Shown here: piece after piece, positions 2,347 through 34,935 of the stretch
How positions within the stretch are numbered: position 1 is the stretch's first letter
How the letters are laid out: every line of letters starts with the position of its first letter
Origin: Candidatus Avimicrobium faecavium
Lineage (GTDB): Bacteria > Bacillota > Clostridia > Oscillospirales > Ruminococcaceae
Assembly: GCA_904419105.1 (NCBI GenBank)
Contig: CAJFQR010000002.1
Span: 1,198-40,642 of the forward strand
Length of the DNA stretch: 39,445 nt
Direction: 5' to 3'
The notes under the pieces: model-generated
Database searches by the model: none
What the model saw: the letters and a program-made list of their open reading frames with translations, nothing else
Told to the model about the DNA's origin: nothing
Position numbers and translations under genes: made by a program

Positions 2347-3177
2347 CTATCTTGTATAAGGCCGGGCACAGGGGACCCGTATTGTATAGACGATGCTGTC
2401 GCCGTCCTCCTCTTCCTTCGTCTCCACCGGAATCCCGGCAGAGGCCATGGCGGAGACGGCTTTTTCGATGGTATTTCGGAGAATCCGGTAATCCCGGAGC
2501 AGGAGTTTCCGTTTGGGCCGGCATTTTTTGGGGGCGAGCAGCCGGGCGACAAGGGCCTCGGTCTCACTGACGGTGCATTTCTTCTCCCGGAGGATCCCGA
2601 GCACCCGGCGAAACTGCTCGTCCTCGCTGAGGGGAAGCAGCGCCCTGGCATGGCGTTCGGTGAGGCCGAGCACCTCCACCTCCTCCCGGACCCAGCCGGG
2701 GAGCTTCAGAAGGCGGAGCTTGTTGGCAATGGCGGACTGGCTCTTTCCAAGCCGCCGGGCCGTCTCCTGCTGGCTGAGCCCGGTGGAGCGGATCAGCGCA
2801 TCGATGGCCTCCGCCTCCTCCATCGGACCCAGATCGGCCCGCTGAAGGTTCTCCACCAGCGCGAGGACGGCAGCCTCGGTCTGGGTACGGCTGCATACAA
2901 GGGCCGGCACCTCGGTCTCACCCAGCAGCCGCACCGCCAGCCAGCGCCGGTGCCCGGCAATGAGGGTATAGGGCCGGCCGGCGCCGGGGTCGCTCTCCCG
3001 GACGGTGATGGGCTGGAGGAGGCCGTTTTCCCGGATGCTGGCGGCGAGGGCTTCCAGCTCCTCCTTTGCATACCGTTTCCGGGGCTGATCCGGATTTGGC
3101 ATAATGGCATCCACCGGGAGGGCAAGGACCCGGCCGGCCGGGGATTCGGTTTTTTGCGGACGGTTCCAGAACGCCAT
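2347..3177 (-). CDS. noc: ParB-family nucleoid occlusion protein Noc
   Basis: Second ParB-like protein (LPVDAIMPNPDQPRKRY, LIAGHRRWLAVR, ALVENLQRADL) between parA and rsmG, the usual noc position. Confidence 0.85.
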   Translation of the reverse strand: MAFWNRPQKTESPAGRVLALPVDAIMPNPDQPRKRYAKEELEALAASIRENGLLQPITVRESDPGAGRPYTLIAGHRRWLAVRLLGETEVPALVCSRTQTEAAVLALVENLQRADLGPMEEAEAIDALIRSTGLSQQETARRLGKSQSAIANKLRLLKLPGWVREEVEVLGLTERHARALLPLSEDEQFRRVLGILREKKCTVSETEALVARLLAPKKCRPKRKLLLRDYRILRNTIEKAVSAMASAGIPVETKEEEDGDSIVYTIRVPCARPYTR

Positions 3178-3290
3178 CGTCTCACCTCCTACTGCCTGCT
3201 GCTTTTATCATAGCAGGGTCCCATTGCTTTTTTCTGTCCGAATTGGTCGAGAAACAAAAGACCTGTAAACAATTCATATGAAAGAATTCG

Positions 3291-4109: not shown

Positions 4110-5992
4110 CGTTCGCCCCTCCCCTGTTGTTCCAGCCAGATCAGCAGCACCGAGATATCCGCCGGGCTCACCCCGGAGATCCGGCTCGCCTGTCCAAGGC
4201 TCCGCGGCCGGATACGGCAGAGCTTTTCCACCGCCTCCAGCCGCAGCCCACGGATCGCCGTGTAGTCGGTGTCCTCCGGCAGCCGGGTGTTCTCCAGCCG
4301 CTCCATCCGGGCCACCTGATCCAGCTGTTTTTTGATGTACCCCTCGTATTTGATGGCCACTTCCACTTCCTCCCGGACTGCTGCCGGCAGATCCGGCCGG
4401 CCCGGGTCAAAGGGAGCCAACATCTCATAGCCCAGCTGCGGCCGGCGGATCAGGTCGGCCAGCTTTGCCCCGGTGGTAAGCGGCGCTGTTTCATGTGAAA
4501 CAAGCAGACGGTTCAGTTCCTCCCCCGGCGCCACACTGACGCCCTTCACCCGGCGAAGTTCCCCGTCGATGAGCCGCTGTTTCTCCAGAAACCGCTGATA
4601 CCGCTCGTCACTGATCAGGCCGATCTCATGGCCCAGAGGGGTAAGCCGGGCGTCGGCATTGTCCTGCCGGAGCAGCAGCCGGTATTCGCTCCGGCTGGTC
4701 ATCATCCGGTAGGGGTCACTGCAGCCCTTTGTCACCAGATCGTCGATCAGCGTGCCGATATAGGCCTGATCCCGCCGGAGGACGATGCCCTCCTTCCCCT
4801 GCACCTGCCGGGCTGCATTGATGCCGGCGATAAGCCCCTGGGCGGCGGCTTCTTCATAGCCGGAGGTGCCGTTGAACTGCCCGGCGCCGTAGAGATGGGG
4901 CACCGAACGGAATTCAAGGGTCGGCTTCAGATCGGTCGGGTCGATGCAGTCGTATTCGATGGCATAGGCATTGCGCATAAACTCGGCCTTTTCCAACCCC
5001 TTTACCGTGTGATAGAGGGCCAGCTGCACCTGTTCCGGCAGGGAGGAGCTCATCCCCTGGATATACATCTCCTCGGTATCCTCTCCCATCGGCTCGATGA
5101 AGATCTGATGCCGGTCCTTGTCGGGGAATTTAACCACCTTGTCCTCGATGCTCGGGCAGTACCGGGGGCCGACCCCCTCGATCTTACCGCTGTACAGCGG
5201 AGAGTACTGCAAATTCTCCCGGATAACCCGATGGGTCTCCTCGTTGGTATAGGTCACATGGCAGACGGTCCGGTTAAAGAGCCCCGCCGGATCGGTCTCG
5301 AAGGAGAAGGGGGTCACCGGTTCGTCCCCCGGCTGGACTTCCAGCCCGGTGAAGTCGATGGACCCCCGCTTAACCCGGGCCGGGGTACCGGTCTTAAACC
5401 GCCGCAGGGCAAGGCCTGCCTGCCGCAGCGATCCACTGAGCTGTTCGGCGGGGCGCTGGTTGTCCGGGCCGGCGGCATAGGTCACATCGCCGACATAGAT
5501 CTTCCCCTTGAGATAGGTCCCGGTGGCAAGGATCACCGCCTTCGCATGATAGACGGCGCCGAGGGCGGTCACCACCCCGCAGGCCTGCCCGTCCGCATCG
5601 GTGAGCAGCTCGACGATCTCCGCCTGTTTGAGGGTCAGATGGGGGGTGAGCTCCAGCTTGTGCTTCATATACCGGGTGTAGGCCGGCCGGTCGATCTGCG
5701 CCCGGAGAGAGTGCACCGCCGGACCCTTGCCCCGGTTGAGCATCCGGCTCTGGAGAAAATTGGCATCAGCCGCCCGGCCCATCTCCCCGCCGAGGGCATC
5801 GATCTCCCGCACCAGATGGCCCTTTGCGGTACCGCCGATGGAGGGATTGCAGGGCATATTGGCGACGGCGTCCAGGGACAGGGTGAAGAGGATGGTCTCA
5901 CAGCCGAGCCGGGCGGCAGCAAGGGCCGCCTCAACCCCGGCGTGCCCTGCGCCGACGATGGCAATATCAATGGAACCGGCATCATACCGCAT
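4106..5992 (-). CDS. mnmG: tRNA uridine-5-carboxymethylaminomethyl modification enzyme MnmG/GidA
   Basis: IAIVGAGHAGVEAALAAARLG, NPSIGG.AKGHLVREIDALGGEMG, RYCPSIEDKVVKF. Confidence 0.97.
   Translation of the reverse strand: MRYDAGSIDIAIVGAGHAGVEAALAAARLGCETILFTLSLDAVANMPCNPSIGGTAKGHLVREIDALGGEMGRAADANFLQSRMLNRGKGPAVHSLRAQIDRPAYTRYMKHKLELTPHLTLKQAEIVELLTDADGQACGVVTALGAVYHAKAVILATGTYLKGKIYVGDVTYAAGPDNQRPAEQLSGSLRQAGLALRRFKTGTPARVKRGSIDFTGLEVQPGDEPVTPFSFETDPAGLFNRTVCHVTYTNEETHRVIRENLQYSPLYSGKIEGVGPRYCPSIEDKVVKFPDKDRHQIFIEPMGEDTEEMYIQGMSSSLPEQVQLALYHTVKGLEKAEFMRNAYAIEYDCIDPTDLKPTLEFRSVPHLYGAGQFNGTSGYEEAAAQGLIAGINAARQVQGKEGIVLRRDQAYIGTLIDDLVTKGCSDPYRMMTSRSEYRLLLRQDNADARLTPLGHEIGLISDERYQRFLEKQRLIDGELRRVKGVSVAPGEELNRLLVSHETAPLTTGAKLADLIRRPQLGYEMLAPFDPGRPDLPAAVREEVEVAIKYEGYIKKQLDQVARMERLENTRLPEDTDYTAIRGLRLEAVEKLCRIRPRSLGQASRISGVSPADISVLLIWLEQQGRGER
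4487..4502. promoter_or_regulatory. parS centromere site inside mnmG
   Basis: TGTTTCATGTGAAACA, identical to the 2288-2303 site. Confidence 0.88.
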
Positions 5993-17410: not shown

Positions 17411-17784
17411 GTATCTCTGTATGAATATAAAATTAGTAGTAGGAGTAGGGGGCCGCAAGATGTGGAAAACCCTGTTTTTCCGCGCAGGCAAGCCGTTTTT
17501 CCGGCCTTCCCCGCTGTGGACACCTCTGTGGAAGATCTGTGGAACCGGCCCCTCTTCCGCCGCCGGCTGTTGAGAGCGGTGGAGAGCTGTGGAAGACTGC
17601 CTCCCGGTTTCCGGAAAACCCGGTGGAAAACCCCGCCAGCCTGCCGGGCAGTTTTCCACAGCCCGGAAAAGTGGAGAAGGGGAAAACTTCCGCTCCACCT
17701 CTTCCCGGTGGAAAACTCCGGAAAACCACCGTCCGGGAGAAGGTTCTCCCGGGGACGGCGCTGTTTTCAACGGCGATTTCCACA
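17411..17784. other. oriC: Replication origin, dnaA-dnaN part: AT-rich DUE, DnaA-trio, GC cluster, DnaA-box cluster
   Basis: AT-rich 17411-17433; TAGTAGTAGGAGTAG 17434-17448; GC cluster 17448-17456; TGTGGAAAA 17461; further TGTGGA-core boxes at 17515, 17527, 17538, 17588; TTTTCCACA 17652; ATTTCCACA 17776. Confidence 0.85.
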
Positions 17785-17848: not shown

Positions 17849-19204
17849 TCAGCTGTCCTGTATATTCTTGATAATATCCTCGACGGTCTCCTTGAAGCGT
17901 GTGTCGGTCTTCATGCGCTTCTCAACCTGGGAGATGGCGTAGACAATCGTCGAGTGGTCCCGGTTGCCCAGCTCGTCCCCGATGGTCTGCATCGAGCTCT
18001 GGGTCACCTCCCGGATCACATAGGCGGAGACCTGTCTGGCCAGCGAGATGTTCGCCGCCCGCTTGCTGGAGCGGATCTCCTCCGGGGAGATGCCATAGGT
18101 CCGTGCCACCTCGGTGAGGATGCGCTCCACCGTCACCTGCAGCGGCTGCGAGTCGTTGAAGATGTCCCGGATGGCGTTCTGGGCGATGAGAATCGAGGTC
18201 GGGCTCCCGACCAGGAGCTTGTAGGCCTTGAGCTTCTTCACCACCCCTTCCAGCTGCCGGATGTTGGATTTCAGCTTGTTGGCGATGTACTCGCTCACCT
18301 CCGGCGGCATATCCAGGTCCATCAGCTCCGCCTTCCGGCGGACGATGGCCACCCGGGTCTCGAAGTCCGGCGGCTGGATATCCGCCAGCAGGCCCCATTC
18401 AAACCGGGTCTTCAGCCGGTCCTCCAGCGTCTTGATCTCCTTCGGGGGCCGGTCGGAGGTCAGGACGATCTGCTTGCCGTTCTGATGCAGCGCCTCAAAG
18501 GTGTGGAAGAACTCCTCCTGTGTGCGCTCTTTGCCGCCGATAAACTGGATATCGTCCACCAGCAGCACATCTGCCGACCGGTACTTGTTGTGGAACTGGT
18601 CGGTGGTGTCGTTGCGGATCGCCTCGACGATCTGATTGGTGAACTCCTCCCCTTTGATGTAGATGCAGTTGTAATCCGGGTGGTTTTTCTTGATCTCGTT
18701 CATGATGGCCAGCATCAGATGGGTTTTGCCCAGCCCGGACCCGCCGTAGATGAACAGCGGGTTGTACGCCTTGGCGGGGTTGGCCGCCACCGCCTGAGCC
18801 GCCGCATGGGCAAACTTGTTGGAGTTGCCCACGATAAAGGTGGCAAAGGTGTACTCATAGTCGCCGCCCTGGCTGCTCTTTTCGATCTCCTCCGGGCTGT
18901 ACCGGTTGAAGGCGGCGCTCTGCTCATCGGCGGCGAGGATGGGGTTCTCACTCGGGCGCTCGATGCACAGGATCTCCACCTCTGCCGGGAAGCCCATCAC
19001 CTCGCTGAACCCCCGGGAGAGCACATCGAGGTATTTTTTGGACACCACATCCTGCATAAAGCTGGAGTTCACCGAGAGCCTGGCCTTGCCGTCCTCAAAC
19101 CCCACCGGCTGGATCGGCGTGATCCACAGGTCATAGGGCACCGGGCTGACCTCTTTTCGCACATACTCTTTGACCAGGTTAAATACTTCCGCAAAGGAAT
19201 CCAT
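17849..19204 (-). CDS. dnaA: Chromosomal replication initiator protein DnaA
   Basis: NPLFIYGGSGLGKTHLMLAI, LLVDDIQFIGGKERTQEEFFHTF, domain IV GNRDHSTIVYAISQVEKRM. Confidence 0.98.
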   Translation of the reverse strand: MDSFAEVFNLVKEYVRKEVSPVPYDLWITPIQPVGFEDGKARLSVNSSFMQDVVSKKYLDVLSRGFSEVMGFPAEVEILCIERPSENPILAADEQSAAFNRYSPEEIEKSSQGGDYEYTFATFIVGNSNKFAHAAAQAVAANPAKAYNPLFIYGGSGLGKTHLMLAIMNEIKKNHPDYNCIYIKGEEFTNQIVEAIRNDTTDQFHNKYRSADVLLVDDIQFIGGKERTQEEFFHTFEALHQNGKQIVLTSDRPPKEIKTLEDRLKTRFEWGLLADIQPPDFETRVAIVRRKAELMDLDMPPEVSEYIANKLKSNIRQLEGVVKKLKAYKLLVGSPTSILIAQNAIRDIFNDSQPLQVTVERILTEVARTYGISPEEIRSSKRAANISLARQVSAYVIREVTQSSMQTIGDELGNRDHSTIVYAISQVEKRMKTDTRFKETVEDIIKNIQDS

Positions 19205-19259: not shown

Positions 19260-19346
19260 TGTGGAAAGAGGAGAAAAAGAATGTGGAAAAGTCGGTGGAA
19301 AGTGTGGAAAACCTGTTTTTCCACTCTTTCTCCCGGCCTTCCCACA
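19260..19346. other. DnaA-box cluster in the dnaA leader (second origin subregion / autoregulatory)
   Basis: TGTGGAAAG 19260, TGTGGAAAA 19282, GGTGGAAAG 19294, TGTGGAAAA 19303, TTTTCCACT 19317, CTTCCCACA 19338. Confidence 0.85.
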
Positions 19347-19680: not shown

Positions 19681-19996
19681 AGCTTTTACGGCGCAGAATG
19701 GGGAGCTCTCCCGGCAGGGCCCGGGAGAGCCCCGGAGCAGGGACAACCGCACGAGCAGAGCAGAAAACGAAACCGCGGCAGAGCCCCCCGCCTTTGCAGG
19801 ATCCGGGCAAGAGACGCTATAAAGTTTTTTGGCAAACCTTTTTTCAGAAGCGATAGCTTTTCCGGCGCAGAACGGAGAGGCCCGGAGCAGGGACACCCGC
19901 ACGAGCAGGGCAGGAAAACGAAACCGCGGCAGAGCCCCCGCCTTCGCAGGATCCGGGCAAGAGACGCTATAAAGTTTTTTGGCAAACCTTTTTTTC
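19681..19996. repeat. Two tandem copies of a ~140-165 bp non-coding repeat
   Basis: Copy 1 19681-19845 and copy 2 19855-19996 share CCCGGAGCAGGGACA..CGCACGAGCAG..GAAACCGCGGCAGAGCCCC..GCAGGATCCGGGCAAGAGACGCTATAAAGTTTTTTGGCAAACCTTTTTT. Confidence 0.85.
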
Positions 19997-29021: not shown

Positions 29022-30038
29022 ATGAAACAGTCCACCATCATCGCCATCGCCGGTGCAGCCGCCATCGCCGTTCTCGGCGCCGTGGCCCTGCCCCTGACTC
29101 AGACCGCCTCTGCCGACATCACCGAGGACCGCGCCAGGGAAATCGCCCTTGCGGACGCCGGCCTCGCCGAGGCGGATACCCAGTACCTCCGCACCAAGGC
29201 CGACTATGACGACGGCCGCTCGGTCTACGAGGTGGAGTTCTACGCCGATGGCACCGAGTACGACTACGAGATTGCCGCCGCCGACGGCACGATCCTCTCG
29301 AAGGACTATGACGCCGAGGGCTACGCCCCGTCCGCCGCTCAGCCGGCCGGCTCCGCCGGTGGCATCACCGAGGACCGCGCCAGGGAGATCGCCCTTGCGG
29401 ACGCCGGCCTCGCCGAGGCGGACACCCAGTACCTCCGCACTAAGGCCGACTATGACGACGGCCGTTCGGTCTACGAGGTGGAGTTCTACGCCGATGGCAC
29501 CGAGTATGACTACGAGATTGCTGCCGCCGACGGCACCATCCTCTCGAAGGACTATGACGCCGAGGGCTATGCCCCGTCCGCCGCTCAGTCGGCTGGTTCC
29601 GCCGGGGACATCGGCGCCGACCGCGCTAAGGAGATTGCCCTTGCGGACGCCGGCCTCACCGAGGCGGATGCCCAGTACCTCCGCACCAGGGCCGACTATG
29701 ACGACGGCCGTTCGGTCTACGAGGTGGAGTTCTACGCCGATGGCACCGAGTACGACTACGAGATTGCCGCCGCCGACGGCGCCATCCTCTCGAAGGACTA
29801 TGACGCCGAGGGCCTTTCCTGCCAGAGCGGCAGCAGCACCGAAGCGGCGCTCACCGAGGCGGAGGCCAGGGCCATCGTCGCCGGGCGTGCGGGGGTGGAG
29901 GGCACCTTCCGGGAGCTGAAGCTGGACCGGGACGACGGCCGGCTGGTGTACGAGGGGGAGATGCGGTCCGGCCGTACCGAGTACGAGTTTGAGATCGACG
30001 CCGTCACCGGCGCGGTGCTCAGCTGGGAAGTGGAGTAA
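29022..30038 (+). CDS. Secreted protein with four PepSY-type repeats
   Basis: Signal peptide MKQSTIIAIAGAAAIAVLGAVALPLTQTASA; three near-identical 82-aa repeats (DRAREIALADAGLAEADTQYLRTKADYDDGRSVYEVEFYADGTEYDYEIAAADGTILSKDYDAEG) plus a divergent fourth. Confidence 0.92.
   Translation: MKQSTIIAIAGAAAIAVLGAVALPLTQTASADITEDRAREIALADAGLAEADTQYLRTKADYDDGRSVYEVEFYADGTEYDYEIAAADGTILSKDYDAEGYAPSAAQPAGSAGGITEDRAREIALADAGLAEADTQYLRTKADYDDGRSVYEVEFYADGTEYDYEIAAADGTILSKDYDAEGYAPSAAQSAGSAGDIGADRAKEIALADAGLTEADAQYLRTRADYDDGRSVYEVEFYADGTEYDYEIAAADGAILSKDYDAEGLSCQSGSSTEAALTEAEARAIVAGRAGVEGTFRELKLDRDDGRLVYEGEMRSGRTEYEFEIDAVTGAVLSWEVE
29116..29812 (+). repeat. 246-bp tandem repeat, 3 copies, coding PepSY domains
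   Basis: Exact 246-bp period between (A/G)CATC landmarks at 29120, 29366, 29612; nearly identical nucleotides. Confidence 0.9.
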
Positions 30039-31959: not shown

Positions 31960-32457
31960 ATGCCCCGGACATACGACTTCACCATCCGCCCCTGGCAGGA
32001 GGCGGACCTGCCCGCCCTGGTCACCATCTGGAACCAGGTGGTGGAGGACGGCGTCGCCTTCCCCCAGGAGGACCTCCTCACCGAGGAGGCCGGCCAGGCC
32101 TTCTTTGCCGCCCAGAGCCGCACCGCCGTGGCCGTCACCCCCGCCGGGGAGGTGCTCGGCCTCTACATCCTCCACCCGAACAACATCGGCCGCTGCGGCC
32201 ACATCGGCAACGCCAGCTATGCGGTGCGCCGGGACGCCCGGGGCCGCCATGTCGGCGAGGCGCTGGTCCGGGACAGCCTGGCCGCTGCCCCGGCCTGCGG
32301 CTTTTGTGTGATGCAGTTCAACGCCGTCGTCGCCTCAAACCCGGCCCGCAAGCTCTACGAGCGCCTCGGCTTCGTCCCGCTGGGCACCGTCCCCGGCGGC
32401 TTCCGCCTGCCGGACGGCAGCTACTCGGACATCTGCCTCTACTACCACACCCTCTGA
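31960..32457 (+). CDS. GNAT family N-acetyltransferase
   Basis: IRPWQEADLPALVTIWNQVVEDGVAFPQ...HIGNASYAVRRDARGRHVGEALVRDSL...NPARKLYERLGFVPLGTVPGGF. Confidence 0.88.
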   Translation: MPRTYDFTIRPWQEADLPALVTIWNQVVEDGVAFPQEDLLTEEAGQAFFAAQSRTAVAVTPAGEVLGLYILHPNNIGRCGHIGNASYAVRRDARGRHVGEALVRDSLAAAPACGFCVMQFNAVVASNPARKLYERLGFVPLGTVPGGFRLPDGSYSDICLYYHTL

Positions 32458-32458
32458 G

Positions 32459-32486
32459 AAAAGCAGGCCCTGCGCCTGCTTTTTTC
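32459..32486 (+). terminator. Intrinsic terminator
   Basis: AAAAGCAGGC-cctgc-GCCTGCTTTTTT. Confidence 0.8.
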
Positions 32487-32558
32487 CTGCCCCGGCGCCG
32501 TCCATATTCCCCTCTGTAATCCCATCCCGGCCCCGTTCCCCGGGAAAAAGGCCGCCCC

Positions 32559-32740
32559 GCCGGGCAGTTTTCCACAGCTCCCGGCGCCGCTGCGGCGGGT
32601 TTTCCCCGGCAGATGCTGCCATCTTTTCCGGAAAACCCCGATGCCGCAGGGAAATTCCGGCGGTTTTCCCCGGTAAACCGCTGCTTTTCCCCGTCCTTCC
32701 CCACCGCCCGGTGGAAAAGTCTGTGGAAAGTGTGGAAAAC
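32559..32740. other. Intergenic DnaA-box array (third cluster)
   Basis: TTTTCCACA 32568-32576; GGTGGAAAA 32710; TGTGGAAAG 32722; TGTGGAAAA 32731; 32711-32740 matches the dnaA-leader array 19283-19312 at 29/30 positions; 32559-32578 shares a 20-mer (GCCGGGCAGTTTTCCACAGC) with 17643-17662. Confidence 0.8.
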
Positions 32741-32767
32741 TCAACAGAGCGTATACCCCGCCGCAAA

Positions 32768-32797
32768 AAACGCCCCGGGCCGCCGGCCCGGAGCGTT
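32768..32797 (-). terminator. Intrinsic terminator for the minus-strand GNAT
   Basis: Minus strand AAACGCTCCGGGCCGGCGGCCCGGGGCGTTTTTT. Confidence 0.7.
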
Positions 32798-32805
32798 TGT
32801 CTGGT

Positions 32806-33243
32806 TCAGAGGGATTTTTCCATCAGGATATGGGGCACCGGCGCGTAGGAGAGGGTGAACACCTCCCCGGCGGTGTGATAGCCCATGTTCTCATAGAAGG
32901 CCTGGGCGGATACCCGGGCGTCCAGCTGGACGGTTTCGGCGCCGGCGTCTTTGGCGAGGGCCTCCAGCCGGGCCAGCAGCCTGCGTCCGATGCCCTCCCC
33001 CTGGAAGTCGGGGTCGACGCAGAGGTATTCGATCCGGCGCACCGGCCCGGCGTTCGTCATCGAGCCGAAGCCGGTCAGGCTGCCGTCCTCATCAAAGGCG
33101 GCCAGCAGGACGCAGTCCTTTTCAAAGGAGAAGTCCTCGTCGTAGATGGAGAGCCCGAGCGGCTGGCGCATGACCCGGTCCCGGAGGGCGAGCCCGGCCC
33201 GGTAGGCGGGGCTGTCATAGCCGATGCGCTGGATGGTAGTCAT
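32806..33243 (-). CDS. GNAT family N-acetyltransferase
   Basis: RIEYLCVDPDFQGEGIGRRLLARLEALAKDAGAETVQLDARVSAQAFYENMGY. Confidence 0.92.
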   Translation of the reverse strand: MTTIQRIGYDSPAYRAGLALRDRVMRQPLGLSIYDEDFSFEKDCVLLAAFDEDGSLTGFGSMTNAGPVRRIEYLCVDPDFQGEGIGRRLLARLEALAKDAGAETVQLDARVSAQAFYENMGYHTAGEVFTLSYAPVPHILMEKSL

Positions 33244-33325
33244 TGTGGATCGACTCCTTTGCGTGGAATTTGGGACCATTATAGCACAAACCGCCGGAAA
33301 ACGAAAGCGCCCCGCCCCGCAGGCA

Positions 33326-33411: not shown

Positions 33412-34935
33412 TCAGTCCACCAGCTTCTCCAGCTCCTTGATGTGCTCGGTCTCGTTGGAGGTCTTGTGCTTGGCCTGCTTGGCATACAGGTGTACCGCCG
33501 CCTGGCTCTTCTTGATCGACTGCATCGTACCGGCGCCGGCCACGCAGCCGCCCGGACAGGCCATGCCCTCCAGCAGATAGCCGTTGTACTTGCCGGCCAC
33601 CGCGTCCTTGAGCATCTTGTAGCAGTCCCGCAGGCCCTCGGCGTTCATCACCTTCACCTCGCGGTCGGGATACCGCTCCTTGATCACATTCACCACGCTC
33701 CGGGCCACGCCGCCGGCCACCGCAAAGTCGCGGCCGTCGGTGGAGGCGTCGTTGACGCCGTCCGGATCCTCCTCCATCGCAGCCAGATCCAGCTCCCGCG
33801 CCGCAAAGATGCCCGCCATCTCCTCAAAGGTCAGTACAAAGTCCACCTCGCTGCGCACGCTCTTGCGCATCGCCTCGAGCTTCTTCGCCGCGCACGGCCC
33901 GATGAAGACCACCCGGCCTCCCGGGCGCTCCTTTTTGATCAGCCGCGCGGTGAGCACCATCGGGGTCAGCGCCATCGAGATGCAGTTGGCGTATTCGGGG
34001 AAGCGCTTCTTCGCCATCACCGACCATGCCGGGCAGCAGGAGGTGCCCATGAACGGGATCTTCTCCGGCACCTCGGCGATGAAGTCCTCCGCCTCCTGGG
34101 TGGCGCACAGGTCGGCGCCGATGGCCACTTCAAACACATCGGCAAAGCCCAGCTTCTTCATTGCGGCACGCAGCTTGCCGGGGGTCACCTTCGGCCCAAA
34201 CTGCCCGACAAAGCTCGGCGCAACGGCGGCGTATACCCGCTCGCCCGACTGGATCGCCCGGATCACCTGGAAAATCTGGCTCTTGTCCGCAATGGCGCCA
34301 AAGGGGCAGTTTACCAGGCACTGCCCGCAGGAGACGCACTTTTCGTAGTCGATCTCCGCCTTGCCGTTTTCATCGGTGTGGATGGCGTCCATGCCGCAGG
34401 CCGCCGCACAGGGCCGCTCCTGGGTGATGATGGCATGGTAGCCGCACACCTCGGCGCAGCGGCCGCACTTGATGCACTTCTCCTGGTCGATGCGACTGCG
34501 GCCGTTGTACCGGTCCAGCGTAATGGCCCCCTTCGGGCACACCTCCACACACGGGTGGGCCAGGCACCCCTGACAGCCCTCGGTCACCAGCAGCCGCTTT
34601 TCGGCACAGCCGTTGCAGGCAAACTTGATGATGTTGATCAGCGGCGGGGTGTAATAGGTCTCGTCCCGGTCGGCAGCCTCAATGTTGTCCGAGATCGGCG
34701 CGTGTTCACCGGCGCCGCGGTAGGGCAGGCCCATTGCCAGCCGCAGCCGCTCCCCTACGATCGCCCGCTCCAGAAAGACATCGTTGCGGAAGTTCCCGAC
34801 CTCGCCGGGGATGATCTTGTACGGCAGCTCCTCGATGCGCTTGGCCACCGGCCACTCGGTGTGATAGGCCATCCGCGCCACTTCGGTGAAGATCATGTGG
34901 CGGATCTCCTGGATTCGCGTCTCAACGCCTCGCAT
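33412..34935 (-). CDS. [FeFe] hydrogenase, group B-like, with N-terminal 4Fe-4S ferredoxin clusters
   Basis: CIKCGRCAEVCGYHAI, CVSCGQCLVNCPFGAI; H-cluster motifs FMGTSCCPAWS, VFIGPCAAKKLEA, EGMACPGGCVAGAGT; start MRGVETRIQEIRHMIF (ORF-track 36144 start is over-extended). Confidence 0.92.
   Translation of the reverse strand: MRGVETRIQEIRHMIFTEVARMAYHTEWPVAKRIEELPYKIIPGEVGNFRNDVFLERAIVGERLRLAMGLPYRGAGEHAPISDNIEAADRDETYYTPPLINIIKFACNGCAEKRLLVTEGCQGCLAHPCVEVCPKGAITLDRYNGRSRIDQEKCIKCGRCAEVCGYHAIITQERPCAAACGMDAIHTDENGKAEIDYEKCVSCGQCLVNCPFGAIADKSQIFQVIRAIQSGERVYAAVAPSFVGQFGPKVTPGKLRAAMKKLGFADVFEVAIGADLCATQEAEDFIAEVPEKIPFMGTSCCPAWSVMAKKRFPEYANCISMALTPMVLTARLIKKERPGGRVVFIGPCAAKKLEAMRKSVRSEVDFVLTFEEMAGIFAARELDLAAMEEDPDGVNDASTDGRDFAVAGGVARSVVNVIKERYPDREVKVMNAEGLRDCYKMLKDAVAGKYNGYLLEGMACPGGCVAGAGTMQSIKKSQAAVHLYAKQAKHKTSNETEHIKELEKLVD

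What the first reader, a model, noticed from the sequence alone, without database searches (positions are those of the whole stretch)
32559..32745. Third DnaA-box array ~13 kb from dnaA that copies the dnaA-leader array
Seen directly: 32711-32740 (gtggaaaagtctgtggaaagtgtggaaaac) matches 19283-19312 in the dnaA leader at 29 of 30 positions, in the same orientation. The 20-mer gccgggcagttttccacagc at 32559-32578 also occurs exactly at 17643-17662 in the dnaA-dnaN origin part. So this intergenic region between a terminated GNAT and a convergent GNAT combines pieces of both origin halves. Inference: a duplicated or displaced origin fragment, a DnaA-titration site (analogous to datA / DnaA-box clusters in Bacillus), or a remnant of the ancestral origin.
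Basis: partly seen in the sequence, partly recalled or inferred. Interest (0 to 1): 0.8.

Follow-up and report, generated by a model that had tools for sequence, protein, structure and literature searches.

The report
Conserved DnaA-box cluster near replication origin
About 13 kb from this Clostridia-type bacterium's replication origin, a short stretch between two genes carries the same three-part docking site for the replication starter protein DnaA as the origin itself; it is kept in the same place in all sampled sister species and most likely helps control when the chromosome is copied, as similar sites do in Bacillus.

Summary
In detail: 32711-32740 matches the dnaA leader at 29 of 30 bases, and a 20-mer at 32559 is identical to one in the dnaA-dnaN gap. 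It is well above chance. The shared piece is a stereotyped unit of three same-strand DnaA boxes whose starts lie 12 and 9 bp apart. This genome has four copies: the dnaA leader, this site, and two elsewhere. All four are kept in both sister species. Here the core is 26/30 identical across three species while the flanks are near-random, and neighbouring genes differ. The site lies between terminated, convergent genes and lacks the DnaA-trio and AT-rich unwinding element found in the real origin, so it is neither an operator nor a second origin. In the family, 219 of 298 genomes carry the unit; the reversed-pattern control scores zero. I read it as an oriC-proximal DnaA-box cluster of the Bacillus subtilis DBC kind, binding DnaA and restraining initiation. 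The binding and titration steps are inferred. The 'displaced or ancestral origin copy' reading is not supported.

The parts
32710..32739 (+). Core unit: three same-strand DnaA boxes, GGTGGAAAA (32710-32718), TGTGGAAAG (32722-32730), TGTGGAAAA (32731-32739); starts 12 and 9 bp apart
   Evidence: conserved in G001 and G002 at the same locus
32568..32576 (-). Single inverted strong DnaA box TTTTCCACA (+ strand reading), inside the 20-mer shared with dnaA-dnaN
   Evidence: not clearly conserved in sisters
32600..32692 (.). Stretch with four TTTTCC motifs, possibly weak or degenerate boxes (inference)
   Evidence: motif list; poorly conserved
32740..32756 (+). Partly conserved tail ACTYAACnnnnnGTATA after the unit; role unknown
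   Evidence: 9 of 20 columns identical in three species, GTATA invariant
32456..32486 (+). Terminator of the left GNAT gene
   Evidence: -19.6 kcal/mol, z -4.8, ends in a T run
32764..32803 (-). Terminator of the right, convergent GNAT gene
   Evidence: -29.2 kcal/mol, z -4.0, ends in a T run
31960..32457 (+). GNAT acetyltransferase (left neighbour; not seen at this place in the sister species)
32806..33279 (-). GNAT acetyltransferase (right neighbour; present in G001, not found in G002)
33412..34935 (-). Monomeric [FeFe] hydrogenase group B1, the conserved right-hand anchor gene in all three species
19282..19311 (+). The same three-box unit in the dnaA leader (oriC1)
17412..17448 (+). AT-rich stretch plus DnaA-trio-like TAGTAGTAGGAGTAG in the dnaA-dnaN gap (oriC2): the origin feature that the third array lacks
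17643..17662 (-). oriC2 copy of the shared 20-mer with TTTTCCACA
17849..19204 (-). dnaA
   Evidence: 91% and 86% identical orthologues in the two sister genomes

Best explanation
The site is an extra-oriC DnaA-box cluster of the Bacillus subtilis 'DBC' kind. DnaA binds cooperatively to a head-to-tail three-box platform with a fixed 12+9 bp register (boxes 1 and 3 are 21 bp, about two helical turns, apart), plus an inverted box about 140 bp away. Because it lies close to oriC, it is duplicated soon after initiation. It therefore adds DnaA-binding capacity just when re-initiation must be prevented, lowering free DnaA. SHOWN here: the box unit, its register, its identity with the unit in oriC, its syntenic conservation, its position between terminated convergent genes, and the lack of unwinding features. 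INFERRED: DnaA occupancy, and the delay of initiation by titration.
For: (1) The unit is the same as in the dnaA leader, and same-strand box spacings in oriC flanks of 18 genomes, measured without this pattern, peak at exactly 21, 12 and 9 bp. (2) In other families of the class the same register occurs with canonical GTGGATAA boxes, so the register persists while the box sequence drifts, as expected for a DnaA platform. (3) Same place in all three held genus members, between a small ORF and the hydrogenase, core 26/30 identical against 45/200 for the left flank, same orientation relative to dnaA each time. (4) 3' ends of genes face the array on both sides in all three species, and both G000 neighbours have strong terminators; no sigma-70-like promoter found. 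(5) No DnaA-trio and no AT-rich element like that of oriC2. (6) In the family, 10 of 83 non-oriC units lie within 50 kb of dnaA against at most 3.65 expected, P about 0.004. (7) Precedent: six DBCs outside oriC in B. subtilis, whose joint removal causes early initiation (PMC5295017, PMC13220808), and a strong DnaA region downstream of both gcp and ydiF (PMC4447404); in E. coli, DnaA boxes accumulate near oriC and titrate DnaA (PMC12371093).
Against: No binding or replication data. The genus-level sample is three genomes, one of them a fragmented MAG. The distance is about 13, 23 and 49 kb in the three species, so exact position is not kept. The same unit also sits far from oriC (site A about 0.8 Mb away in G006) and in probable promoters, so it is not a dedicated oriC-proximal device. 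In B. subtilis the clusters are individually weak: a strong phenotype appeared only when all six were removed.
Confidence: 0.68

Rival explanations
1. DnaA binds here, but the cluster does more than soak up DnaA: it nucleates a DnaA filament that loops to oriC, or promotes nucleotide turnover on DnaA (works like datA or DARS without IHF).
For: Same unit and register as in oriC1; fixed orientation relative to dnaA in three species; a conserved non-box tail with GTATA that could be a partner-protein site.
Against: No partner site identified. B. subtilis lacks datA, DARS and IHF (PMC13220808). The distance from oriC varies from about 13 to 49 kb.
Confidence: 0.14
2. Operator: DnaA, or another regulator with this site, controls a neighbouring gene.
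For: Sites A and D lie in likely promoter regions (divergent ogg/small membrane protein; upstream of darA-holB-ricT). B. subtilis DnaA regulates several genes.
Against: At this site, gene 3' ends face the array on both sides in all three species; G000 has strong terminators on both sides; no promoter-like match; the GNAT neighbours differ between species while the unit stays.
Confidence: 0.07
3. Second, displaced or ancestral replication origin, or a recently duplicated origin fragment.
For: Pieces of both origin halves occur together; the exact 20-mer is unique among distant repeats in the window, so local conversion or duplication of that half in this lineage is possible.
Against: Homology to the leader stops at the 30-bp unit. 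No trio or unwinding element. The site predates the genus split and is not especially similar to each species' own leader. The dnaA-dnaN gap has the full origin set.
Confidence: 0.04
4. The unit is recognised by a protein other than DnaA.
For: TGTNGAA also resembles the Spo0A box (from memory), and overlap with Spo0A sites is possible.
Against: The unit is found in the dnaA leader and dnaA-dnaN gap of many genomes, boxes fit TTWTNCACA, and in other families the register is kept with GTGGATAA boxes.
Confidence: 0.05

Closest known systems
Bacillus subtilis DnaA-box clusters outside oriC (DBCs; Okumura et al. 2012, cited in PMC5295017 and PMC13220808; DnaA binding mapped in PMC4447404)
   Same: Cluster of several DnaA boxes outside oriC, some near oriC, present at a handful of sites per genome; one strong B. 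subtilis DnaA region (gcp/ydiF) is likewise downstream of both neighbours.
   Different: Different loci and neighbours. Here the core is a stereotyped three-box unit with a 12+9 bp register, the same as the dnaA-leader unit; boxes are mostly TGTKGAAAA rather than TGTGGATAA. No binding or deletion data.
E. coli datA
   Same: Non-coding DnaA-box cluster away from oriC.
   Different: datA is about 1 kb, has five boxes and needs IHF (PMC5295017); no IHF-type site was sought or identified here.
E. coli oriC-proximal high-density region of DnaA boxes (PMC12371093)
   Same: Enrichment of boxes near oriC, read as favourable for titration.
   Different: There it is a statistical density over a broad region; here it is a discrete, conserved 30-bp unit.
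Bipartite clostridial origin, oriC1/oriC2 (PMC7561715)
   Same: Same box type, and the same unit as oriC1 of this genome.
   Different: Lacks the DnaA-trio and unwinding element that mark oriC2 in Clostridia.

Membership tests
Extra-oriC DnaA-box cluster (DBC) | Several DnaA boxes clustered well above background outside dnaA/dnaN | tested here: met
   Three same-strand boxes plus one inverted in about 170 bp; 95 TGTGGAAA in 1.535 Mb genome-wide; reversed unit pattern 0
Extra-oriC DnaA-box cluster (DBC) | Evolutionary maintenance of the cluster | tested here: met
   Same locus in 3 of 3 genus members; core 26/30 against flank 45/200 identical
Extra-oriC DnaA-box cluster (DBC) | DnaA occupancy in vivo or in vitro | not testable with these tools
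   Needs ChIP-seq or IDAP-seq
Extra-oriC DnaA-box cluster (DBC) | Loss of the clusters changes initiation timing | not testable with these tools
   Needs a cultured relative and deletion strains
Replication origin (oriC) | DnaA-trio and AT-rich unwinding element beside the boxes | tested here: not met
   Present at 17412-17448; no trio in 32458-32805 nor in the G001 or G002 third sites, and the most AT-rich 30 bp here (63% AT) is the box unit itself
Replication origin (oriC) | Initiator or replisome genes beside it | tested here: not met
   Neighbours are GNAT genes and an FeFe hydrogenase
datA | IHF-dependent DnaA-ATP hydrolysis | not testable with these tools
   No biochemical data; no IHF site search was made
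DnaA-regulated promoter | Boxes overlap a promoter of an adjacent gene | tested here: not met
   Convergent gene ends on both sides in three species, terminators in G000, no promoter-like match

The most novel reading that the evidence does not exclude
A whole bacterial family uses one stereotyped three-box DnaA platform (12+9 bp register) both in the dnaA region and at a small set of dispersed, conserved chromosomal stations, which together act as a distributed switch on DnaA (filament nucleation or nucleotide turnover), not merely as passive sinks.
Probability: 0.14. Interest if true: 0.7.

Novelty: new member of a known kind. Interest (0 to 1): 0.42.

Why it matters
Control of initiation in Clostridia is little studied, and whether titration clusters are a general device outside Bacillus and E. 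coli is open. A sequence-defined unit found in 219 of 298 genomes of one family, absent from sampled genomes elsewhere in the phylum in this exact box form but present in the class with canonical boxes, turns this into a listable set of sites that can be tested together in a culturable relative.

Tried and rejected
Recent duplication of an origin fragment: rejected, because the match to the leader ends at the unit and sister-species sites are not leader copies. Site travelling with the hydrogenase gene: rejected, because 20 hydrogenase loci outside the genus, including an 85%-identical one in another family, lack the unit, as do 80 named hydrogenase loci in 1.34 Mb. Promoter or operator: see rivals. 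GC skew as an origin marker: uninformative, negative in nearly the whole window without a turn at dnaA. Shared ancestral neighbourhood for all oriC-proximal units: not so; four other genera share a different site (site D, beside holB), others have unrelated neighbours. Okumura et al. 2012 is not held; I used reviews that cite it.

Full report
WHAT IS THERE. The window lies on contig C2 of a 1.53-Mb, 158-contig, 88%-complete MAG. dnaA is at 17849-19204 (-), with its leader on the right and the dnaA-dnaN gap on the left. At 32710-32739 there are three same-strand DnaA boxes, GGTGGAAAA-gtc-TGTGGAAAG-TGTGGAAAA, whose starts lie 12 and 9 bp apart. The dnaA leader has the same unit at 19282-19311. 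About 140 bp to the left is one inverted TTTTCCACA inside the 20-mer that also occurs in the dnaA-dnaN gap. All nine TGTGGAAA octamers of the window are in these three non-coding arrays.

CHANCE. TGTGGAAA occurs 95 times in the genome (35 for the reversed word). The 29-bp unit with up to 3 mismatches occurs four times in G000 and in 28 of 61 genomes searched, while the reversed control occurs in none. The 20-mer is the only direct 20-mer repeat in the window whose copies lie more than 1 kb apart, so it is unusual too. It is not conserved in the sisters, and part of it is an extended box (AGTTTTCCACAG also occurs at site B).

CONSERVATION AT THIS LOCUS. Only three genomes of the genus are held. 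In all three the unit lies between a short ORF and the B1-type FeFe hydrogenase (94% and 85% identical proteins), in the same orientation relative to dnaA, at about 13, 23 and 49 kb from it. The GNAT genes differ: the left one is seen only in G000, and the right one occurs in G000 and G001 (59% identity) but not in G002. The three-way alignment keeps 26 of 30 core columns against 45 of 200 to the left and 14 of 79 further right; a 20-bp tail keeps 9, including GTATA. The unit is therefore held by selection (inference) while its surroundings turn over. Hydrogenase loci of other genera do not have it, so this placement is genus-specific as far as sampled.

OTHER COPIES. G000 has two more units. 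Site A (C11) lies in a divergent gap between an ogg-family glycosylase gene and a small gene for an unassigned, about 90-aa protein with a hydrophobic C-terminus. Site B (C49) lies upstream of serS. Both have counterparts in G001 and G002, and arrays near relatives of the site A genes occur in other genera (L112, L116, L117, L120). In the family, 219 of 298 genomes (108 of 126 genera) have at least one unit with at most one mismatch, and the reversed control is zero in every genome. In 298 other genomes drawn from the phylum there is none in that exact form. With a box-tolerant pattern the same register appears in 25 of 291 genomes of the class, often with canonical GTGGATAA boxes, control zero. 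Measured without this pattern, same-strand box spacings in the oriC flanks of 18 genomes peak at 21, 12 and 9 bp. These last two results are the best sequence evidence that the unit is a DnaA platform.

PROXIMITY TO ORIC. Among 48 genomes with a located dnaA, 10 of 83 non-oriC units lie within 50 kb of dnaA; at most 3.65 are expected under uniform placement (Poisson P 0.004). Caveats: genomes were taken from a truncated list of hits, some proximity had been seen before the test, related genomes are not independent, and contig breaks hide distances. Several of these are one orthologous site, beside holB (with darA and ricT in most), in four other genera.

WHAT IT IS NOT. Neighbouring genes converge on the array, and in G000 each ends in a strong terminator; no promoter-like match lies there. 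The dnaA-dnaN gap has a TAGTAGTAGGAGTAG trio beside an 80% AT stretch; the third site has no trio here or in the sisters, and its most AT-rich 30 bp is the box unit itself. In Clostridia the trio and unwinding element mark oriC2 (PMC7561715). So it is most likely neither an operator nor an origin.

MECHANISM. The closest precedent is the B. subtilis set of six DnaA-box clusters outside oriC, whose joint deletion advances initiation (PMC5295017, PMC13220808). One of the strong in-vitro DnaA regions lies downstream of both gcp and ydiF (PMC4447404), the same convergent situation. In E. coli, accumulation of boxes near oriC has been tied to titration (PMC12371093). By analogy, this site binds DnaA cooperatively, is doubled early in the cycle, and lowers free DnaA. 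Binding and effect were not tested. An active datA/DARS-like or looping role cannot be excluded; the invariant GTATA tail is unexplained.

NOVELTY. The kind is known. The locus, the family-wide distribution, and the fixed 12+9 register shared by the dnaA leader and the extra-oriC sites were not found in the papers searched, but that library is partial.

Noticed in passing
G000 C11, L055:894-1172 (-), array at about 1346-1423, L055:1560-2507 (+): A DnaA-box array fills the divergent gap between an ogg-family DNA glycosylase gene and a conserved ~90-aa protein (MLRGVNRKIIEV..., hydrophobic C-terminus, no Pfam or NCBIfam match). Relatives recur near arrays in other genera (L112, L116, L117, L120): a candidate DnaA-regulated small membrane protein.
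   Followed up: partly
L262, L263, L272 (g9), L118 (g13), L267 (g21), L264 (g105): In four other genera a DnaA-box array lies beside a conserved neighbourhood with holB (and ricT/darA in most), 16-39 kb from dnaA where both are on one contig: a second oriC-proximal cluster at a different place.
   Followed up: partly
window 32740-32756 and the same place in L102 and L108: Conserved tail ACTYAAC-n5-GTATA downstream of the three-box unit; not a DnaA-trio and not at sigma-70 spacing from a -35-like box.
   Followed up: partly
window 19763-19995: Direct repeat with about 150-bp offset (exact stretches of 27 and 49 bp) right of the dnaA leader.
   Followed up: no
window 29022-30038: Protein with three near-identical ~82-aa repeats (ITEDRAREIALADAGL...); looks PepSY-like from memory, no NCBIfam match.
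   Followed up: no
window, whole: GC skew is negative in nearly all of the window and does not change sign at dnaA, although the dnaA-dnaN gap carries the trio and AT-rich element.
   Followed up: no
G000 C28 (L057) about 5579-5725 and C154 (L058) about 3170-3188: Further box groups: C28 has two TTTTCCACA plus GGTGGAAAA just after a terminator-like hairpin; C154 has the perfect inverted pair TTTTCCACA-g-TGTGGAAAA.
   Followed up: partly
window 33412-34935; G049 C48:136235-137755: The B1 FeFe hydrogenase is 85% identical to one in a different family of the order, but only about 51-72% identical to those of other genera in its own family, suggesting horizontal transfer.
   Followed up: no
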